A DNA stretch of 64,000 nucleotides from Trueperella pyogenes (lineage in GTDB: Bacteria > Actinomycetota > Actinomycetes > Actinomycetales > Actinomycetaceae), in NCBI RefSeq assembly GCF_900460345.1, contig NZ_UHHW01000002.1, forward strand, positions 1,178,001-1,242,000. Reading direction: 5' to 3'. The notes below the pieces were generated by a model, which saw only the letters and a program-made list of their open reading frames with translations, was not told the origin of the DNA and did no database searches. Within the stretch, counting starts at the first letter, position 1; every line of letters starts with the position of its first letter. The position numbers were made by a program, and so were the translations under genes. Below, in pieces: positions 19,900 to 29,943 of the stretch.

Positions 19900-22773
19900 T
19901 TAGTTACCACGATGGCGCGGCGTGTAACGCGAAGCGGCAACAATGCCCACACCGCCGAGGAGTGCAAACAAAGACAGCTTCAAAGCACCATCGGTGGTCG
20001 CACCGGTATGAGCAAGAGCCTTCTCCTGCTTAGGAGCAGGCTGCTTAGCAACAACCTCGCTAACAGCCGGAGGCGTGACCACCGGGTCAACCACAACCGG
20101 GTCAGCGGGCTTGGCCGGATCAGCGGGCTGAACCGGAGCCACTGGATCCGCGGGCTTGGCGCACTCTTCCAAAGCCCGTGCCTGAGCCAACTCCTTCTCA
20201 GCCTTCGCCGAGGCCTCCTCAGCTACCTTCAGACCCGATGCAGCACTATCAACAGCCTTCTTAGCACCCTGCAGAACCCGGTCAGCGTCAGCCACATATG
20301 CCTGACCAAGCTCACTCTTCGCCGAAGCCTCAGCAGCACCAGCCTGAGCACTCACAAGCTCCGCCTTCTTCGCCTCTAGCCCCTTAAGCGCATCAGCAAC
20401 CTTACCCGCCTTTGCGGCTTCCGCGTCGGCAGCATCCAACACCTTCTTGGCCTCGGCAGCCTTCTGACCAGCAGCAAACGCGGCCATCTTCTTTGCCTTC
20501 ATGTCCTGTTCGAGCTTAGCCACGCGCTCCGCGGCAGCCTTAGCCTCAGCAAGACGCTTGTCAGCGTTTTCCGGATCTGTAGCCTGGTAGGCGTCGTAGG
20601 CTTTCTGTGCTGCGGCGTCGGCTTCTTCCAGTGCCTTGTCTGCGGCTTGCGACGCCGTCAAAGCGTCTGCTGCAGCCTTATCAGCGGCCTTTTCAGCCTC
20701 GTCAGCTTCTTTGGCTAGCCCCGCGGCCTTATCGCTAGCGGCCTTAGCAGCTGCAGCCTTCTCGGCAGCCTCACGCGCCTCATCGGAAAGAGCCTTAGCC
20801 TTCTGGCCTGCTTCAATAGCAGCCTTATTCTTATCGGCCAAGTCCTTCTTCAGCACATTAGCCTTTTCCTCAGCGTCAACAGCAGCCTTATTCGCAGCAC
20901 GCATCGCCTTCTCAAGCTCAGCCACGCGAGCAGCCGCATCCTGCGCGGCCTTCAGATCGTTAGCGACACGATCCGGATTGGCGTCATTGTAGGCGTTATT
21001 TGCTTCCTCGTTAGCCTTATCGGCTGTTGCCTCTGCTTGCTTAGCGTCCTCCCAGGCCTTCTTCTTCGCCGCCACATCTTGTGCAGTGCTCTCAGCCAGA
21101 GCCTCAGCTTCGGCCAGCTCGCGGCGAGCCTCGTCCGCCTTTGCTGTGATCACGATGAAGGCGTTGTTGAGGACTTCCCACTTTTCATTGGCTCGTTTGA
21201 ACTCAGATCGCGCATCTTCGGCCAGCCGTTCGGCCTCTCGCAACTTTTTATCCTCATCAAGGAAGATCTTCTTTTCTTCTTCTAGATTCTTTTTCTCTCC
21301 CGTCAAAAGTTCTTCTACCTGACGAAGAGTTTCTCTAGCTCGGCCAGATCTCTCAGAAGGTTCTAAGATCTCCTGATTAACAGACCCGTCTTCCTTGAAC
21401 AGCGGATTAACTGTTTTAAAAGCACGTCGAAAATCTTCTAAAGCTTCCTCGTAATCCTTCCTTGCACTTTCCAAACGAGTCTCAAGTGACTTTACGGAAG
21501 TTTCTCGGTTATTGACATACCCCTGCCACTGATCATAAGTTCTCTTAGATTCTTTTTCCTTCGCGGACAGATCTTCAGCTTTCTTTTCAGCAGCTGACTT
21601 TTCCTCGAGTACTTTATTTAGCTGTTTGCGGGCTGGCTTAAGCTCTTCTTCAACAAGTTTCTCAATGACGTTCACAGCGTCTTTGCTCTTGAAAACTTCA
21701 GCCTTAGCCGCCGAGTATAAAGACTCGGCTTCCTCTAGATTATCCCAGGCCTCGCGCACAGCCTCTGCGGCGGCAACCGCTGCCTTGTTAGTCTCGCTTC
21801 GATCTGCGTCAAGTTTAGAAACGCGAGCGGCTGCGACTCCTGCGTCCTCGAGAGCCTTAGCCACTCCATCTGGATCTGCGGCCTGGTAGGCGTCATAAGC
21901 CTTTTGTGCTGCGGCGTCGGCTTCTTCCAGTGCCTTGTCTGCGGCTTGCGACGCCGTCAAAGCGTCTGCTGCAGCCTTATCAGCGGCCTTTTCAGCCTCG
22001 TCAGCTTCTTTGGCTAGCCCCGCGGCCTTATCGCTAGCGGCCTTAGCAGCTGCAGCCTTCTCGGCAGCCTCACGCGCCTCATCGGAAAGAGCCTTAGCCT
22101 TCTGGCCTGCTTCAATAGCAGCCTTATTCTTATCGGCCAAGTCCTTCTTCAGCACATTAGCCTTTTCCTCAGCGTCAACAGCAGCCTTATTCGCAGCACG
22201 CATCGCCTTCTCAAGCTCAGGTATGCGAGCCACTGTATCTTCGGCAGATTTGAGATCTGCGGCCACCTTATCTGGATCTGCTGCCTTGTATGCTTCCTCT
22301 GCGGCCTTAGCAGCTTTATTGGCCGCTTCCCCCGCCGCGCGCGCCTCATTCCACGCCTCAAGCGCTTCTTCAGCAGCCTTCTGTGCGGCTACAGCTGCCT
22401 CATAAGCTTTCTGCGCCTGTTTGACGGCCTCTTTTGCGGCGGTAACCTTGGCCGCGGCCTTATCGCGTGCCGATACTAAATCATCGGCACTCTTCTTTAT
22501 TCTGTCGAACTCAGCCTGAGCCTGATCTGCATGAGCCTTCGCCTGCTCAAGTGCAGCCGACGCCATAACTACCTCGTTACGCGCATGTTCCAAAGCGACA
22601 CGCGCAGCCTCAACCTTCTGAGCTTTCTCAGCGGGAGCCCAACAGACTAGTCTCTTAGCGTCCCCATCGGTGTTCGGGACCCCGAATGCTGGCCCCCCCC
22701 CCCCCGCAGCAACAACACCACTTAGCGTTGCAGCAAGCGCTACTTTCATCGCAAGCGAATTCGTCGCTTTCAT
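19900..22773 (-). CDS. Sortase-anchored Ala-rich coiled-coil surface protein, probably phase-variable
   Basis: 957 residues. Signal peptide at residues 1-30 (hydrophobic core VALAATLSGVVAAG), then a mature N-terminus, then about 830 residues of alanine/lysine/glutamate-rich heptads, a Pro/Asp/Ala/Lys stalk (PADPVAPVQPADPAKPADP), and the sorting signal LAHTG (complement of 20002-20016), hydrophobic helix and basic tail YTPRHRGN. Only two mature cysteines are visible, one at each end (LVCWAP and LEECAKP), which could join the ends of a long helical hairpin. The signal-peptide codons contain 13 consecutive G; the present length is in frame. A block of about 105 residues is duplicated exactly. 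It is probably a wall-anchored fibrous adhesin; the ligand is unknown. Confidence 0.85.
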   Translation of the reverse strand: MKATNSLAMKVALAATLSGVVAAGGGGPAFGVPNTDGDAKRLVCWAPAEKAQKVEAARVALEHARNEVVMASAALEQAKAHADQAQAEFDRIKKSADDLVSARDKAAAKVTAAKEAVKQAQKAYEAAVAAQKAAEEALEAWNEARAAGEAANKAAKAAEEAYKAADPDKVAADLKSAEDTVARIPELEKAMRAANKAAVDAEEKANVLKKDLADKNKAAIEAGQKAKALSDEAREAAEKAAAAKAASDKAAGLAKEADEAEKAADKAAADALTASQAADKALEEADAAAQKAYDAYQAADPDGVAKALEDAGVAAARVSKLDADRSETNKAAVAAAEAVREAWDNLEEAESLYSAAKAEVFKSKDAVNVIEKLVEEELKPARKQLNKVLEEKSAAEKKAEDLSAKEKESKRTYDQWQGYVNNRETSVKSLETRLESARKDYEEALEDFRRAFKTVNPLFKEDGSVNQEILEPSERSGRARETLRQVEELLTGEKKNLEEEKKIFLDEDKKLREAERLAEDARSEFKRANEKWEVLNNAFIVITAKADEARRELAEAEALAESTAQDVAAKKKAWEDAKQAEATADKANEEANNAYNDANPDRVANDLKAAQDAAARVAELEKAMRAANKAAVDAEEKANVLKKDLADKNKAAIEAGQKAKALSDEAREAAEKAAAAKAASDKAAGLAKEADEAEKAADKAAADALTASQAADKALEEADAAAQKAYDAYQATDPENADKRLAEAKAAAERVAKLEQDMKAKKMAAFAAGQKAAEAKKVLDAADAEAAKAGKVADALKGLEAKKAELVSAQAGAAEASAKSELGQAYVADADRVLQGAKKAVDSAASGLKVAEEASAKAEKELAQARALEECAKPADPVAPVQPADPAKPADPVVVDPVVTPPAVSEVVAKQPAPKQEKALAHTGATTDGALKLSLFALLGGVGIVAASRYTPRHRGN
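20606..20921 (-). repeat. 316-base direct repeat, copy 1
   Basis: Identical to 21905-22220 over the whole stretch as read by eye; both copies lie in the same orientation and frame (offset 1299 bases = 433 codons). It codes for the segment from about EKAMRAANKAAVDAEEKAN to EEADAAAQ. Recombination between the copies would delete 433 codons in frame. Confidence 0.9.
21905..22220 (-). repeat. 316-base direct repeat, copy 2
   Basis: Second copy of 20606-20921. Flanks diverge at once at one end (22221 onward) and gradually at the other, suggesting recent gene conversion or duplication. Confidence 0.9.
22693..22705 (-). repeat. Homopolymeric G13 tract in signal-peptide codons
   Basis: Thirteen C on the plus strand, read as GCG GGG GGG GGG GGG on the coding strand (residues 23-27). 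With 12 G the frame reaches TAG within about 16 codons after the tract; with 14 G it reaches TAA within about 13. Slippage would therefore switch the protein off. It is the longest single-base run noticed in the window. Confidence 0.9.
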
Positions 22774-22842
22774 AACATACCTTTCGTGTTAGGACATCGA
22801 AATCAAATCCGCATTATCGCGCAGAACATAGGCCGAAAATCC

Positions 22843-22977: not shown

Positions 22978-25900
22978 TTACCTGCGCTTACGACGCCGAC
23001 CCAGCAGCAAAGCCGCTCCCACCAACACAGCAATGAGCGCCACATAAGCAAGTCCCATCACTTTCGCCCCTGTCCAGGCGAGGATATTCTGCTCCGCCTG
23101 GGCTACCGCCGGTGTCTCCTTTGTAGAAACGGCTGGCACAGGATCGGGCTGCGGAAGGATCGAATCGATTTCTTCGGCCGTCATCGCTCGGGTACGGGTT
23201 TCGGCCGTCACCTTGGCGTCCTTAGCAGATTCTTTCCACGCAAAGTCGCTTGGATCCCAAACGTACGGCGTCGTTATCACTTCACGCGATTCGGTGACCA
23301 CCTTTGCTTGGCTGTCTACAGAGGTGACTTTCCAATCACCTAGCTTCACAGAATCAATAGGCCTAAGTGTCCGAGCCTGGGCTTCTTCTGACGTCATCGG
23401 ACGCGTTCGCGTCTCAATTCGAGTCACTGCTTTAGGCTCATAAGTCCAGGTGGCCGTGGACCACACAAATTCAGTAGTGGTAACAGAACGCTCCTGAGTC
23501 ACTTCACGCTTATCAAGAACGAAAGCAACATCGATCCACTCTCCGACGACGACGGTCGACCCCGGCTCAAGCGTAAGGTCCATTGCCTCACGCTCAGTCA
23601 GGTCCCGAACTTGGGTTTCAACACTCGTGATCGATTGCGGCACATACGTCCCGGACTGCTCGTCCCACGCGTATTCGGTAGTTGTCACGATACGTTCCTG
23701 GGTCACTTTCCGAGTAGCTAGGTTGAATGCCTTGTCACGCCACTCAGTTGCCTCCACCGTAGTATCGGGCTGTGCCGGAAGTTCTACTGTGAACGTCCAC
23801 GACGATTCTGAACCCTCAGCGAGGACATAACCGGCAAGCGCTTCAGCTACTACTGTCAGGGACTGACCCGGCTTGACTATCAGCGAGCCGGTGACGGCCT
23901 TACCATCGGTCTTATAAATTACGCCCGCCACCGTCGGGATGAGAATCTCACCGTCAGACGCTGTAAAGCTGGGAGCCATAGGCGAAACAACCAGAGGCTC
24001 TGGTGCCGCCGTCGGTTCAGGGGTAGGCCCCGCCGTCGGTTCAGGTTGCACTGGATCAGGTGTGGGAGGGTCGGCAGGATCGTCACTCTTTTGCTTCTGA
24101 ACGAATACCACCGCAGAACGCGCCGGTATCTTCGCTGTACCGGAGTCGGAATCCCACGTGGCTTGCCCCAGGATCGGATCGTCGTCCACACCATCAGTCA
24201 GTATTGGAGAAAGCTCGAGCTCGAGTCCCTTCATTTCTGGAATGTGTTGGCGAATCTCCTCAGGCGAGGCATTGATAGCCACTAGCAAGCCGTCATAGTT
24301 CTTATCGACGTCCGTCCCCTTCGTGTCATCAACACGCATCAGGATCAGACCCGCCTGCTGGTCACGGCCGGCACCCGGAAAACTCACCTTTTCCTTAATA
24401 AGATCTGCTTTTCCGAGCGTAAGCAACGGGTATGCCTGCCGCATTCTGAGAAGTTCCAAGGCCTGCGAGTGTGCCTTGGCAAGATCCTCAGGTTTGGCCA
24501 CATTCCTGGAATTTGTGAGGAATGGCCGCATGGCCTCCCACTGCTCCTTATTGTCACGCTCTGGTGGAAGGCCTACACCGAAATTGTGCTTTTCTCCTGT
24601 CCAGTCGATTGCGTTGAAGTGATCTCCCGAATTATACGTGTTGCGATCCATGGACTTTGATCGCAACAAGTCCGTGCCAGCATGCCAGAAAGAGGGCGAC
24701 TGGCCGAGAGTAACAGTCGCCAGCGAGACCGTATTCATACGCACGCGCGTGTCCATAGTCGAATTTGCGGGCAACTTCCACATATTAGTGTCGTAAAGCG
24801 ACTCGTTATCGTGTGCGTCAACATAGTTGATACTTTCCTCCGGGCTGAGAGCATAGCCGGCCTTTTGGCTGTTATACATCAGCTGGTCACCACGCTTGAC
24901 CTCCCCAGAGCTAGTGAGGAACTCGTAGTCTTTGAGGTTTCCAGCCATTCCCAAGCGGATGAGGTCTTGGTTGTGGCGTAAGCTGCGCAACTGCTCATCA
25001 TTCTTTGAGTTCAGCTGATTGGGATCCGTGTACTGGCCAGTACCGAATCCTTGTCCCTGCGACTTATTCTTATCGAAACCATTTCCACCGTGTACCGCAT
25101 CACGCAGGCGATCATTGAATGAACCGATACCAGTTCCGTCTAGCTGCCCTTGCGCCGCTTGGTGGAAACGCTTGTTGTCCTTGACGTCGTCGCCAAAGTT
25201 CCACCCTTCGCCGTAGAGATAAATGCTCTTGCCGTCGATGCCGTCCTTGTCAAGGGTCAATTCGGACAGTGCCTTTTGGATAGCCTCCATGTTCGAACGC
25301 GAGTGATGACCCATCAGGTCAAAACGGAAGGCGTCGATGTGGTAGTCGCGTGCGAGCGTCACCACCGTGTCTACCATAAGTTGTTCGGCCATCGCGTTTT
25401 CCGTCGCCACGTTCTCACAGCAGGTCGACTTGGCCACTGTACCGTTGTAGTTCAACCGATGGTAGTAGCCGGGCACGACTTTATCGAGCACAGACTTCTC
25501 CCCTTGACCCGATTGCGCCGTGTGGTTAAATACCTGGTCAAGGATGACCTGGTATCCCATTTTGTGCAGGCCACCAATCATTTGGCGGAATGCTGCGGAG
25601 CGTCTACCTCCGTTTTGGTTACCTTCTGATGCATACGACCCTTCCGGCGTCATGTAGTGGTACGGATCGTAACCCCAGTTAAATCCGTCTTCGTCGGCTA
25701 CCGCCATCACAGCTGCCTGCTGATCCGCCGACGCCGGGGCGGCCGCAGGTATCTTCGCTACCTTCTGTTCAGCGCGCTTTTCGGGGATGGTCGCGATATC
25801 AAAGGTCGGAAGCAGGTGAATCATGTTCATGCCCGCTTTGGCCAGCTCCCTCAGATGCCTGACTCCCGCAGAATCGTCCAAAGCGAAAGCCTCGTACGTG

Positions 25901-28900
25901 CCACGCAGATGCTGCGGAACAGATTCGTCCTGGATAGAAAAGTCGCGTACGTGCAGCTCGTAGATGCTTCGCGACGCATCATTCCTCATACGCGGAGCCT
26001 TATTGGCTTTCCATATCTCTGGCATGAATGCTGGATCTTTAAGATCGACGACGACCGACTGCTTCGAGTCGACCGTCAATCCCACCGAATACGGATCCGA
26101 AACGATATTGTGCTCAATCTTTTCGGTTGTCGGAGCGAATACCTCGACGTCATAGAGGTAGGCGCGATTCTTCCAATCCGCCGCGCCCGTCAGTGTCCAG
26201 GTACCGTCAGACTGGCGTGTCATTTCCTTCGATGTCGGCGTACCCGTGCCCTTATCGCCGTCGAAAAGTTGAAGCGAGACGGATTTGGCCGTGGGTGCCC
26301 ACAGGGTGAAAGTCGGAATGCCCTCTTTAAATGTCAGGCCAAGATCCTTTCCTGCTCGAGCTTCGGTCGCATAAAGGGCATCGAGAACGCCCGGAATCTG
26401 CAGTCCTGTAAATGCAATTGGAGTACCAGAAAGGTCCTTGGCAAGGATTGCAAGGTTACCCTTGAGCGCCTCTTCGGCAGCTTCCCGAGACACATTGATC
26501 TTGAGCGTTTCAAAACCTTTCAGATGGTTGCGATTTTTCAGTCGATCGTCAGATAGACCAGCCTTGGAATGGGTCAAATCCGCGATTTTCTTTGCACCTT
26601 CGCCGACCACCTTGCCACCAGAAGGTGCAAGTTTCGCATTACCGCCCCAAAGCTCGAATTTCAGATCACTCCGCCCGCCGGTAAGGATGCCCGGCCAAGC
26701 GAAAGTCGTTTCATCCACCCAATAAGCGGTACGTTCGCCTTGTCCTGCCAGCGGGATCTCTCCTTGGCTAATATCGAGCAGATGGTTGCCGGAGTTGTAG
26801 GAAAAAGTGACTAGCTTATTATCCCCCACGGTGAACTGATAATTGCTGCCGTTTGCGCTGCCACCCTGGCCGTAGTTTTCAGACCAACTCTGGCCATGAG
26901 CCACTTTAACTTCATAGTTACCTTGCGGAATTCTGGCCGTGCTGAAGGTGTAATTCCCATCGGCCGTCGGGAACATAAGTGTGGCTAGACAGGCAGGGTT
27001 CCAGTCTTCTTTGAACTCACCAATAGGTTTGCACCCAAGTATCGAGTTGAAAGTCCCCGGCAAGGTGATTATCGGATCCGAAGCGGTATTGAAGAACTGG
27101 TGAGTGGTTGGGTTATAGAAGAAGGTCACGTCCTTTTCTTCATTCACTGTGTATTTGACATTGTCACCCTTAGGTTTTCCACCGGCACCATAGTCCACGT
27201 CCCAGCTTCCACCGATCGCGACCTTATACTCGTAGTCTCCCTTCGGAATTTTCCACGTCCCCCGATACAGGCCAGAAGCCCCATCAAGTGTCAGACGGGA
27301 GTCAACGCACGCAGGATCCCAGTTGTTTGAACACCCCATCGCTTGTTGGTGTGTGCCTGGAATAACGACGTCGTTCCGGCCAATTCCAGACGGAGCCGGT
27401 GTGGTAGATCCGAGATCTGTGCCGACGACGAGGAGAGTCGAATCAGCAACCTTCTTGCCTGCACTATCGGTGGAAACCGCGCGAACCTCAACCAGCGTTC
27501 CCGGCTCGTAGTTCAGTCGCGCAAATACACGCGGCTCGTCTCCTTCAGCGACGCCGAGAGGTGTGTACTCTTCCGTGCCCAGTGGCCGGTAGGAGAAAGA
27601 AGTCTCCGCCCAACGATGTTTAGTTATATCTGCCATAACAGGGGTCAAACCATCAACTGGTACGGCTGTGGTGACCTTGATAGTCTGCGTCTCTCCTGCA
27701 GGCGCAACCGTTTTATCGGCCTTGAGCACGATTGCCGACAGCGGTGGCACCTTGATGGTCACAGTGTCGTCAGCTTTGACCACATCCTTAGCACCATAAA
27801 GAGGCGTGTATGTGGCTCCCGGAGTCAACGTCGCAAAAGTGGCCTGCTTTTCCGAATCCGAATTATTGATGGCGATGATGTGCTCGATCTTCTCGTCACG
27901 ATCAACCCGAGCCGCAGCGAAAATGCCCGGACCGTTGTCATAATGCAAAGTGACCTGAGCGCCGGAAGATAGAGCTTTGTTCGCTGTGCGCAATTTGGCG
28001 AGCGCAGAGATATGTTCGCTCATATCCGTCTTGCCAAAACGCTCCTGCGAGCCCGCGACACTACCGTCAAGCATCTTATAGTTCTGGTATTCAACAGTCT
28101 GGGTGGCAAACAGAGATTCGCGAGCGCCCTTATCTTTATCATCTCCCACGAAACCCTGTTCATCACCGTAGTAAAGAACTGGCTGCCCACGCGTGAGATA
28201 CATGAGCGCATGAGCTAGTTTGGAACGCCCCATAGGATCGGAACTGTTACGCAAGAGCCAGCCAATGCGCCCCATGTCATGATTGCCTAGGAAAGTGGGC
28301 ATGGCATCGGCTGAAGAATGCGGAGTCGTGTAGTAGGAATCGGCCGCGAAAGCTGAGGCGAGGGCTTTCGCCGAGCCGCCGCCCGCATATCCTTCTGCCC
28401 ACGACTGGAAAGCGAAGTCAAGTACCGCGTTCATGTTGGTATCGCGCAGATATGGAGCCAGAAGCGTGGTCTGCGCGTCGTAGACCTCACCAAACATGAA
28501 GAAGTTGGGAGTCTTAGTCGACGTGGCGTAATCCCGAATCGCCTTGGTGAATTGCTGCCAGAATTCGAAGTTCACATGCTTGACTGTGTCAATGCGGAAG
28601 CCATCAACCCCGAAGTCAACCCATTTCTTATAAATGTCGATCATGCCGTCGCGGACTACCTTGTTCTCCGTCATGAGATCATCAAGATCTCCAAAGTCCA
28701 TGTTGGTGGCAGGCTCACCAGACGGCCACTTATCATCGAACCCGCGATTGTGGTACAGAGTCGGATCGTTGAGCCAATCGGGGAACTTCGCGTGTTCCAT
28801 TCCCTGAGGGATTTCCGGATCGTAGGGGAACGAGGATTTGTCTGGGTTCATCTCCGGGAAAGTCTCCGCACGGGCGTAATCTGCCGGATCGAATGACTGG

Positions 28901-29895
28901 CCGTTCTTATCCTTATACGGGTTGTCCTTCTTATAAACGTAAGGAGGATTCTGGTTCTCTAAGCCCGCGTAATAGATGATGTCAGCGGTGTGGTTGGCGA
29001 TGATGTCGAAGTAGACTTTCATGCCCTTCTCATGAGCCGCCGTGATAAAGTCCTTCAGCTCCTGATTCGTTCCGAAGTGCGGATCGATCTGAGTAAAGTC
29101 CGTGATCCAGTAACCATGGTAACCGGCACTTGCCTTGTCACCGATGCCCTGAACCGGCCGGTTGACGAAAGACGGAGTGAGCCAAATAGCAGTCTGGCCA
29201 AGAGCCTGGATGTAATCGAGTTTGTCCTGCAAGCCCTTTATATCGCCACCATGGAAGAAAGCACGATCCGTGGGATCGTATCCGGTCTTCATGCGATCAG
29301 TTTCATCGCAATTGACAGGCAACTTTCCATCATCACCAGCGTGCCCAGTCGCAATGCACTTATCGTTCTTCGGATTGCCATTGTTAAAACGATCGGTGAG
29401 AACGAAATACATGTTTTGACTTGCGCCCGGATCCCGATAAGGAGATTTGACCAGGGCATCGTCACGGTCAGAATACTCCCCAGGAAGATCCGGTGCCGTC
29501 ACCGAGACTTTTTTCTTCATCTCATCGAAGCTAAACTTGAGCTTTCGTTCCTTATCCAGGCGCAATGGGTAGTTGCCATCTTTGAAGCCTTCCATCCCGT
29601 AGGATCCTTCCCACGAGTTATTGACAGTGATCTTGAAAGCGTGCTCACCTGCGGGAATGGTGAGATCGGCAGTCCAGATCCTGTCTCCGTCGTCGTCCCT
29701 CAATGCGGTAACAGCACACGATTCGTCCCAGTCCTTCGAGCATCCCAATGCTTTTTGGAACGTTCCAGCGACCGTGACATTAGCTGTTGCGGTCACAGCG
29801 GGCGTGGCAGTGAGGCCGACGAAAGTCGGCAAGCTGACCACGAAAGCGAGCATCAAACCAATGAGGCGCGCAGGCCTCGTATGTGAAACTTTCAC
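22978..29895 (-). CDS. Sortase-anchored bifunctional amylopullulanase
   Basis: 2305-residue wall enzyme for starch/glycogen. Order: signal peptide (1-35); an X25-type starch-binding module (about 38-110); a first GH13 catalytic domain (about 155-725) with DIIANHTAD, DGFRIDTVKH, the acid GEVYD and FLGNHD; two more X25 modules (about 845 and 945, each with a GCxxxWxxxC-like core); pullulanase N-terminal domains (about 1048); a second GH13 domain (about 1310-1930) with DQVFNH, DAFRFDLMGHH, YLYGEGWNFG and YVDAHDN; a Pro-rich linker; three stalk repeats of about 65 residues (about 2050-2245, TTTEYxW/ETRTRxMT pattern); and LAWTG plus membrane helix and RRRKRR. Alpha-1,4 (first) and alpha-1,6 (second) hydrolysis are inferred. 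GTG 29895 is chosen for its GAGGGAG site. Confidence 0.9.
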   Translation of the reverse strand: MKVSHTRPARLIGLMLAFVVSLPTFVGLTATPAVTATANVTVAGTFQKALGCSKDWDESCAVTALRDDDGDRIWTADLTIPAGEHAFKITVNNSWEGSYGMEGFKDGNYPLRLDKERKLKFSFDEMKKKVSVTAPDLPGEYSDRDDALVKSPYRDPGASQNMYFVLTDRFNNGNPKNDKCIATGHAGDDGKLPVNCDETDRMKTGYDPTDRAFFHGGDIKGLQDKLDYIQALGQTAIWLTPSFVNRPVQGIGDKASAGYHGYWITDFTQIDPHFGTNQELKDFITAAHEKGMKVYFDIIANHTADIIYYAGLENQNPPYVYKKDNPYKDKNGQSFDPADYARAETFPEMNPDKSSFPYDPEIPQGMEHAKFPDWLNDPTLYHNRGFDDKWPSGEPATNMDFGDLDDLMTENKVVRDGMIDIYKKWVDFGVDGFRIDTVKHVNFEFWQQFTKAIRDYATSTKTPNFFMFGEVYDAQTTLLAPYLRDTNMNAVLDFAFQSWAEGYAGGGSAKALASAFAADSYYTTPHSSADAMPTFLGNHDMGRIGWLLRNSSDPMGRSKLAHALMYLTRGQPVLYYGDEQGFVGDDKDKGARESLFATQTVEYQNYKMLDGSVAGSQERFGKTDMSEHISALAKLRTANKALSSGAQVTLHYDNGPGIFAAARVDRDEKIEHIIAINNSDSEKQATFATLTPGATYTPLYGAKDVVKADDTVTIKVPPLSAIVLKADKTVAPAGETQTIKVTTAVPVDGLTPVMADITKHRWAETSFSYRPLGTEEYTPLGVAEGDEPRVFARLNYEPGTLVEVRAVSTDSAGKKVADSTLLVVGTDLGSTTPAPSGIGRNDVVIPGTHQQAMGCSNNWDPACVDSRLTLDGASGLYRGTWKIPKGDYEYKVAIGGSWDVDYGAGGKPKGDNVKYTVNEEKDVTFFYNPTTHQFFNTASDPIITLPGTFNSILGCKPIGEFKEDWNPACLATLMFPTADGNYTFSTARIPQGNYEVKVAHGQSWSENYGQGGSANGSNYQFTVGDNKLVTFSYNSGNHLLDISQGEIPLAGQGERTAYWVDETTFAWPGILTGGRSDLKFELWGGNAKLAPSGGKVVGEGAKKIADLTHSKAGLSDDRLKNRNHLKGFETLKINVSREAAEEALKGNLAILAKDLSGTPIAFTGLQIPGVLDALYATEARAGKDLGLTFKEGIPTFTLWAPTAKSVSLQLFDGDKGTGTPTSKEMTRQSDGTWTLTGAADWKNRAYLYDVEVFAPTTEKIEHNIVSDPYSVGLTVDSKQSVVVDLKDPAFMPEIWKANKAPRMRNDASRSIYELHVRDFSIQDESVPQHLRGTYEAFALDDSAGVRHLRELAKAGMNMIHLLPTFDIATIPEKRAEQKVAKIPAAAPASADQQAAVMAVADEDGFNWGYDPYHYMTPEGSYASEGNQNGGRRSAAFRQMIGGLHKMGYQVILDQVFNHTAQSGQGEKSVLDKVVPGYYHRLNYNGTVAKSTCCENVATENAMAEQLMVDTVVTLARDYHIDAFRFDLMGHHSRSNMEAIQKALSELTLDKDGIDGKSIYLYGEGWNFGDDVKDNKRFHQAAQGQLDGTGIGSFNDRLRDAVHGGNGFDKNKSQGQGFGTGQYTDPNQLNSKNDEQLRSLRHNQDLIRLGMAGNLKDYEFLTSSGEVKRGDQLMYNSQKAGYALSPEESINYVDAHDNESLYDTNMWKLPANSTMDTRVRMNTVSLATVTLGQSPSFWHAGTDLLRSKSMDRNTYNSGDHFNAIDWTGEKHNFGVGLPPERDNKEQWEAMRPFLTNSRNVAKPEDLAKAHSQALELLRMRQAYPLLTLGKADLIKEKVSFPGAGRDQQAGLILMRVDDTKGTDVDKNYDGLLVAINASPEEIRQHIPEMKGLELELSPILTDGVDDDPILGQATWDSDSGTAKIPARSAVVFVQKQKSDDPADPPTPDPVQPEPTAGPTPEPTAAPEPLVVSPMAPSFTASDGEILIPTVAGVIYKTDGKAVTGSLIVKPGQSLTVVAEALAGYVLAEGSESSWTFTVELPAQPDTTVEATEWRDKAFNLATRKVTQERIVTTTEYAWDEQSGTYVPQSITSVETQVRDLTEREAMDLTLEPGSTVVVGEWIDVAFVLDKREVTQERSVTTTEFVWSTATWTYEPKAVTRIETRTRPMTSEEAQARTLRPIDSVKLGDWKVTSVDSQAKVVTESREVITTPYVWDPSDFAWKESAKDAKVTAETRTRAMTAEEIDSILPQPDPVPAVSTKETPAVAQAEQNILAWTGAKVMGLAYVALIAVLVGAALLLGRRRKRR

Positions 29896-29943
29896 TTCTA
29901 GACTCCCTCGTCTGATCAAGACACAGCAACGTGCAAAGGTGTT

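What the first reader, a model, noticed from the sequence alone, without database searches (positions are those of the whole stretch)
22693..22705. G13 tract in signal peptide: likely ON/OFF phase-variable surface protein
Thirteen consecutive G encode GGGG in the signal peptide of a 957-residue sortase-anchored coiled-coil protein. I translated both slipped forms: 12 G leads to TAG and 14 G to TAA soon after the tract, so single-base slippage would abolish the protein. Poly-G switching is well known in Campylobacter, Neisseria and Helicobacter but rarely described in actinomycetes. The reading frame here is ON. A sequencing miscount is possible, although the tract would still be long.
Basis: partly seen in the sequence, partly recalled or inferred. 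Interest (0 to 1): 0.88.

Follow-up and report, generated by a model that had tools for sequence, protein, structure and literature searches.

The report
Poly-G switch in Trueperella surface protein
A run of thirteen Gs in the secretion signal of a cell-wall protein of the livestock bacterium Trueperella most likely lets cells switch that protein on and off by copying slips, and it is one of several such runs placed at surface genes in this genome.

Summary
The minus strand at 22693-22705 carries 13 G, coding GGGG in the signal peptide of an intact 957-codon, LAHTG-anchored, helical surface protein; 12 G ends at TAG and 14 G at TAA within 43 nt. Chance is unlikely: the genome has five G tracts of 11 or more where Markov models of order 2-5 expect at most 0.2 (order 1: 1.1), and no A/T run of 8 or more. 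All five lie in or upstream of secreted-like, sortase-anchored or pilin genes. The best new evidence is a natural length change: two paralogous coiled-coil genes share a 471-bp block at 96.8% identity whose one gap is the tract, G11 (out of frame) against G7 (in frame). The genus lacks MutS (0 of 9) and has NucS (9 of 9), which does not repair indels in mycobacteria. Poly-G of 10 or more occurs in 8 of 9 genus genomes. Switching within one strain was not testable, and the assembly looks single-molecule, so the length is uncertain by about one base. New member of a known kind: C. acnes and Gardnerella have such tracts.

The parts
22693..22705 (-). G13 tract (C13 on + strand), codes GGGG, residues 24-27
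19900..22773 (-). 957-aa Ala-rich helical, sortase-anchored surface protein gene, in frame (ON) as assembled
   Evidence: no Pfam family, no PDB relative
22681..22773 (-). signal peptide coding region; tract lies just before the likely cleavage site (cleavage inferred by eye from alignment with homologues, no predictor run)
22780..22785 (-). Shine-Dalgarno-like GAAAGG ahead of the ATG
   Evidence: read; inference
22591..22593 (-). internal TTG (residue 61), where the T. pyogenes homologue P0001 is annotated to start
19903..20016 (-). cell-wall sorting signal: LAHTG at 20002-20016, hydrophobic stretch, RYTPRHRGN tail
20510..20809 (-). internal direct repeat, copy 1
21809..22108 (-). internal direct repeat, copy 2 (88% identical)

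Best explanation
The tract is the switch of a simple-sequence contingency locus. During replication the polymerase slips on G13 and adds or loses Gs; the genus has no MutS, and its NucS repair is expected not to fix indels. Any change that is not a multiple of three puts the sequence after the tract out of frame, translation stops within about 43 nt, and no anchored protein is made. A later slip can restore the frame. A population thus holds cells with and without this rod-like cell-wall protein, and, because other surface genes of the genome carry similar tracts, many combinations. Shown: tract, frame logic, excess over chance, tract-length difference between sister genes, placement at surface genes, absence of MutS. 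Inferred: slippage itself, its rate and reversibility, the effect on surface display, and its benefit (host immune or adhesion heterogeneity).
For: Frame consequences. Excess of long G tracts and no A/T run of 8 or more. All 5 of 5 G tracts of 11 or more in this genome lie at surface or secreted-like loci: this gene; a LAYTG-anchored coiled-coil paralogue, out of frame (L049); the signal-peptide-like start of a small ORF before a thioester-domain, LARTG-anchored gene (L047); a signal-peptide-like start next to an IS, out of frame (L048); 373 bp upstream of a SpaA pilin gene with a sortase gene after it (L050). Paralogues L049 and L084 share a 471-bp block at 96.8% with one gap, at the tract, G11 against G7, and differ in frame. 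The homologue of L049 with the same neighbour gene in G006 (L083) and the closest homologue of the window gene in G006 (L082) have no tract. Orthologous SpaA-domain proteins in G002 (L051) and G003 (L053) carry the tract at the same place, in frame in one and out of frame in the other, with 831 aligned codons after it at dN/dS 0.40. P0001, a T. pyogenes homologue 96% identical over the overlapping N-terminal part, is annotated from the internal TTG, as expected if its upstream ATG is out of frame. MutS 0 of 9, NucS 9 of 9; NucS does not repair 1-2 base indels in M. smegmatis (PMC11551767, passages).
Against: No second allele of this very gene's tract was seen at DNA level; the two protein searches with this gene returned only P0001, which lacks the tract region, and only the 7991 and 7998 best word-sharing candidates were scored. 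The P0001 start is an annotation choice, not proof of a frameshift. The assembly seems to be single-molecule, so 13 may be 12 or 14. In C. acnes most such tracts follow clades, arguing for slow change there. Poly-G of 12 or more is common in a phylum sample, 95 of 296 genomes, against 103 of 200 in the family sample, so presence alone is not special. Under a first-order Markov model the excess of tracts is modest (P 0.005). Beyond this genome only about half of the genus tracts are at surface-type genes.
Confidence: 0.8

Rival explanations
1. Slow, clade-level variation or decay: the tract changes length over lineages, not within a population, and the gene is simply lost in some strains.
For: In C. 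acnes, in most cases strains of one clade had the same tract length (PMC4746626 section 17). Tract-free homologues exist.
Against: Out-of-frame relatives keep long open frames (725 codons after the tract in L049; 834 in L053, with dN/dS 0.40 against its in-frame orthologue), which is not decay. Sister paralogues differ by 4 G in otherwise near-identical DNA.
Confidence: 0.13
2. Homopolymer length error in the assembly: the tract is real but the length, and so the ON state, is not reliable.
For: Contig C4 is palindromic and differs from C2 mainly by indels: 49 and 11 gap letters with 1 and 0 mismatches in two alignments.
Against: The 957-aa frame is intact as assembled; an error of 1 would not remove a tract of 12 or more, and would not explain G11 against G7 in paralogues or tracts in 8 of 9 genus genomes.
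Confidence: 0.05
3. Frame is tolerated: polymerase or ribosome slippage on the run makes some full-length protein whatever the tract length, so it tunes amount and is no switch.
For: Long homopolymers are known to cause transcriptional slippage in some bacteria (recalled).
Against: No data here for or against; most reported effects are on A/T runs (recalled).
Confidence: 0.02

Closest known systems
Cutibacterium (Propionibacterium) acnes homopolymeric tracts, e.g. dermatan-sulphate adhesins (PMC4746626; abstract, passages and section 17 seen)
   Same: Actinobacterium; variable tracts 96% G/C; putative surface proteins with tracts in the 5' UTR or coding sequence; frameshift effect; one tract placed between -35 and -10
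   Different: There 72% of tracts are intergenic and most vary by clade; the tract here lies in a signal peptide and its variation within the species is unmeasured
Gardnerella homopolymer tracts, e.g. a GA-module protein (PMC11287997; passages seen)
   Same: Actinobacterium; tracts at proteins with LPXTG and other surface motifs; length variation between colonies of one strain shown for one tract
   Different: A/T tracts outnumber G/C there (medians 38 and 20); here there is no A/T run of 8 or more in the genome
Poly-G contingency genes of Neisseria, Campylobacter and Helicobacter (recalled)
   Same: Mechanism: slippage in a G tract toggles frame or promoter spacing of surface genes
   Different: Unrelated bacteria and proteins; here sortase-anchored Gram-positive proteins
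Homopolymer phase variants of Mycobacterium tuberculosis ESX-1 (PMC11898584; search listing and abstract start only)
   Same: Actinobacterium, indels in homopolymers
   Different: Different genes; a secretion system, no set of anchored surface proteins

Membership tests
Homopolymer contingency (phase-variable) locus | Repeat tract longer than chance gives | tested here: met
   (weakest under a first-order model, P 0.005)
Homopolymer contingency (phase-variable) locus | Placed so that a change of one unit abolishes the product | tested here: met
   12 G stops at TAG, 14 G at TAA
Homopolymer contingency (phase-variable) locus | Length differs between close alleles of the same gene | tested here: inconclusive
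   Shown for a sister paralogue pair, G11 and G7; for this gene only an annotated internal start in T. pyogenes P0001
Homopolymer contingency (phase-variable) locus | Reversible switching within a clone, with matching expression | not testable with these tools
   no reads, no strains, no expression data
Homopolymer contingency (phase-variable) locus | Repair background permissive for indels | tested here: met
   MutS_V in 0 of 9 genus genomes, with 11 of 14 control genomes positive; NucS 9 of 9; NucS indel blindness taken from M. smegmatis, PMC11551767
Sortase-anchored (LAXTG) surface protein | C-terminal LXXTG motif, hydrophobic stretch, basic tail | tested here: met
   LAHTG...RYTPRHRGN; LAXTG proteins and sortase E are reported from the T. 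pyogenes surface proteome (PMC7350218, passages)
Sortase-anchored (LAXTG) surface protein | N-terminal signal peptide | tested here: inconclusive
   By eye from alignment with homologues; no predictor was run
Sortase-anchored (LAXTG) surface protein | A housekeeping sortase E in this genome | not tested
   two sortase-domain genes were seen beside pilus loci; sortase E was not sought

The most novel reading that the evidence does not exclude
Trueperella, and perhaps much of the Actinomycetaceae, uses poly-G as its general random switch: in each species a different small set of genes, many of them sortase-anchored rods, adhesins and pilins but also a Type ISP restriction-modification enzyme, is switched by G tracts placed in signal peptides, coding regions or between promoter boxes, so that the reported mixture of fimbriated and bare T. 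pyogenes cells is genetically programmed.
Probability: 0.4. Interest if true: 0.68.

Novelty: new member of a known kind. Interest (0 to 1): 0.5.

Why it matters
Trueperella pyogenes causes abscesses, metritis and mastitis in livestock (PMC6600626, abstract start), and its surface proteins are being sought as vaccine targets (PMC7350218, abstract start). If surface proteins switch at random, a protein missing from one culture or isolate may still be in the repertoire, and single-strain proteomes mislead. It might also bear on the report that about 10% of cultured cells carry fimbriae (Yanagawa and Honda, as cited in PMC6134790, passages). The sequence gives a cheap test: count Gs.

Tried and rejected
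Identification by named genomes: the one genome-contig scan, with the neighbouring pullulanase gene, gave three loci, two Microbacterium and one Propionibacteriaceae; names came instead from P0001 and P0002 (both Trueperella pyogenes) and an exact match of a published fimE primer in this genome. P0002 is closest, among the proteins compared, to the G006 gene (88% over 187 aa), so the name T. pyogenes may cover both G000 and G006. Strain variants: three protein searches returned only P0001 and P0002; about 8000 candidates each were scored because the sequences are Ala-rich. Family-wide enrichment of poly-G was weak (103 of 200 against 95 of 296) and is not used as proof. The three tracts of G001 (L064, L065) are counted but not interpreted: a G11/C13 palindrome and a contig end in a draft of 150 contigs. 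A promoter role for the L050 tract (between -35 and -10) was not supported. Pfam and PDB gave nothing for the window protein. The dN/dS values of the coiled-coil genes against G006 rest on saturated sites (pS 0.72-0.75) and are not used. Print: the searches (open PMC papers only; one search listed 20 of 41) listed no paper whose title or abstract start treats poly-G switching in Trueperella or Arcanobacterium; listed papers were not opened except those cited.

Full report
What is there. The coding (minus) strand reads G13 at 22705-22693. The ORF 22773-19900 is 957 aa: MKATNSLAMKVALAATLSGVVAA-GGGG-PAFGVPN..., then an Ala-rich sequence (28% Ala, 12% Lys, 12% Glu) modelled as nearly all helix (low confidence, single sequence), then LAHTG, a hydrophobic stretch and a basic tail. 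With 12 G the ATG frame ends at TAG after 41 codons, with 14 G at TAA after 39. The gene stands between a convergent CrcB gene and a 2313-aa pullulanase gene with a sortase-type C-terminus on the same strand.

Organism. The only homologue found for this gene, P0001, is from Trueperella pyogenes, and the published T. pyogenes fimE forward primer (PMC6134790, passages) matches this genome without mismatch at C2:134675; of the other eight genus genomes one (G006) matches with two mismatches and seven have no match within three. I take it as T. pyogenes or a very near species.

More than chance. G000 (2.31 Mb) has nine G/C runs of 8 or more: two each of 8 and 9, none of 10, two of 11, one each of 12, 13 and 14. 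It has no A or T run of 8 or more. Markov models of order 1 to 5 expect 1.08, 0.19, 0.15, 0.04 and 0.0001 runs of 11 or more. Order 1 is the least favourable (P of five or more 0.005); it also predicts 66 runs of 8 or more where nine exist, so it overstates long runs.

Where the tracts lie. The five of 11 or more are: this gene; L049 (C2:1449125, G11), in the signal peptide of a LAYTG-anchored coiled-coil paralogue, out of frame as assembled; L047 (C2:30500, G12), at the signal-peptide-like start of a 112-codon ORF just before a 428-aa gene with a thioester domain and LARTG anchor, state unclear because no ATG stands upstream in frame; L048 (C2:294791, G14), after 12 codons of a signal-peptide-like start, out of frame, next to an IS with an integrase core; L050 (C2:2037976, G11), 373 bp upstream of a SpaA pilin gene (334 bp from its longest ORF start) followed by a sortase gene. 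So 5 of 5 touch secreted-like or anchored proteins or a pilin locus; 'secreted-like' is by eye. Of the two G9 tracts, one lies 85 bp upstream of the ATG of a secreted-like protein (76 bp from an in-frame GTG) at the head of the gene row that leads to fimE (L087), and one lies in frame in a gene with weak helix-turn-helix matches, all below the Pfam cut-offs, beside a pilin-sortase operon (L089). The two G8 runs have no clear gene relation.

Natural length change. L049 and L084 (C2:190-196 kb) are paralogues. Their 5' blocks share 471 bp at 96.8% with 11 mismatches and one gap, and the gap is the tract: G11 against G7; a second block of 439 bp at the 3' end is 89.7% identical with six gaps, and the middle differs. 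L084 reads through as 676 aa; L049 is out of frame. The G006 homologue with the same upstream neighbour (L083) and T. pyogenes P0002 have ATEGD in place of the glycines, and the closest G006 homologue of the window gene (L082, 37% identical) has AGTVAS there. The tracts thus look young and labile (inference). P0001 matches our residues 61-643, the first part at 96%, and begins exactly at our internal TTG; an annotator would do so if the ATG were out of frame. Its 3' end falls in the second copy of the internal repeat in reading order, probably a contig end (inference).

Genus. Pattern search found 24 tracts of 10 or more in 8 of 9 genomes (G000 5, G001 3, G002 3, G003 2, G004 1, G005 7, G006 2, G007 0, G008 1). 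I looked at all 24. Ten lie in or upstream of anchored, secreted-like, lipoprotein-like or pilin genes (window, L047, L048, L049, L050, L051, L053 first tract, L055, L058, L052 first tract). Four lie in or at other genes named by Pfam: a Type ISP restriction-modification enzyme split between its nuclease-helicase and its coupler-specificity parts (L057), an RNase_T exonuclease (L054, G19), a TetR regulator (L062), an ABC ATPase with the tract 4 bp before its likely start codon (L061). One is 98 bp from the start of a galactokinase-like gene (L063; named by eye). The other nine are intergenic or unclear, three of them in draft contigs of G001. L051 and L053 are orthologues in two species with the tract at the same place, in frame in one and out of frame in the other, while 831 aligned codons after it show dN/dS 0.40. 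L055 lies upstream of a pilin gene similar to that of L050, and is flanked by TTGACG and TTTAAT at a spacing of 20 with 13 G: a possible spacer-length switch; a consensus match is not proof.

Repair. MutS_V was found in 0 of 9 genus genomes (11 of 14 control genomes positive), NucS in 9 of 9 (7 of 14 controls positive). In M. smegmatis NucS does not repair 1-2 base indels (PMC11551767, passages).

Limits. Contig C4 is an 11-kb palindrome of a C2 stretch with 49 and 11 gap letters but 1 and 0 mismatches, a mark of single-molecule reads, so the tract length and the ON state are provisional. No population data were available. In C. acnes most tracts vary by clade; in Gardnerella one tract varied between colonies. 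Poly-G of 12 or more is found in 103 of 200 family and 95 of 296 phylum genomes. I therefore hold the switch at 0.8 and make no claim about rate.

Verdict. The mechanism is known from other bacteria, including actinobacteria, so it is a new member of a known kind.

Noticed in passing
L057:6654-6663 (G005): G10 splits a Type ISP restriction-modification enzyme (Mrr_cat_2 and ResIII before, ISP_coupler and Type_ISP_C after): candidate phase-variable R-M system.
   Followed up: partly
L055:6286-6298 (G005): G13 upstream of a pilin gene lies between TTGACG and TTTAAT, spacing 20: candidate promoter-spacer switch of a pilus.
   Followed up: partly
L087:5260-5268 (G000 C2:130259): G9 85 bp upstream of the ATG of a secreted-like protein at the head of the gene row leading to fimE.
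   Followed up: partly
L054:6647-6665 (G004): G19 splits an RNase_T exonuclease gene with a weak GIY-YIG match; could be a sequencing artefact.
   Followed up: no
L094 (G000 contig C4): 11-kb palindromic contig duplicating C2, almost only indel differences: assembly artefact that also carries extra NucS matches.
   Followed up: yes
window 20510-20809 and 21809-22108: 300-nt direct repeat within the surface protein gene, 88% identical, a possible site of length change by recombination.
   Followed up: no
L085:1537-2650 (G000 C2:814 kb): Another coiled-coil relative, interrupted in its frame without a G tract of 8 or more; described only.
   Followed up: no
window 22978-29919: 2313-aa protein with alpha-amylase and pullulanase-type domains and a LAWTG sorting-signal-like C-terminus, directly upstream of the surface protein gene.
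   Followed up: no
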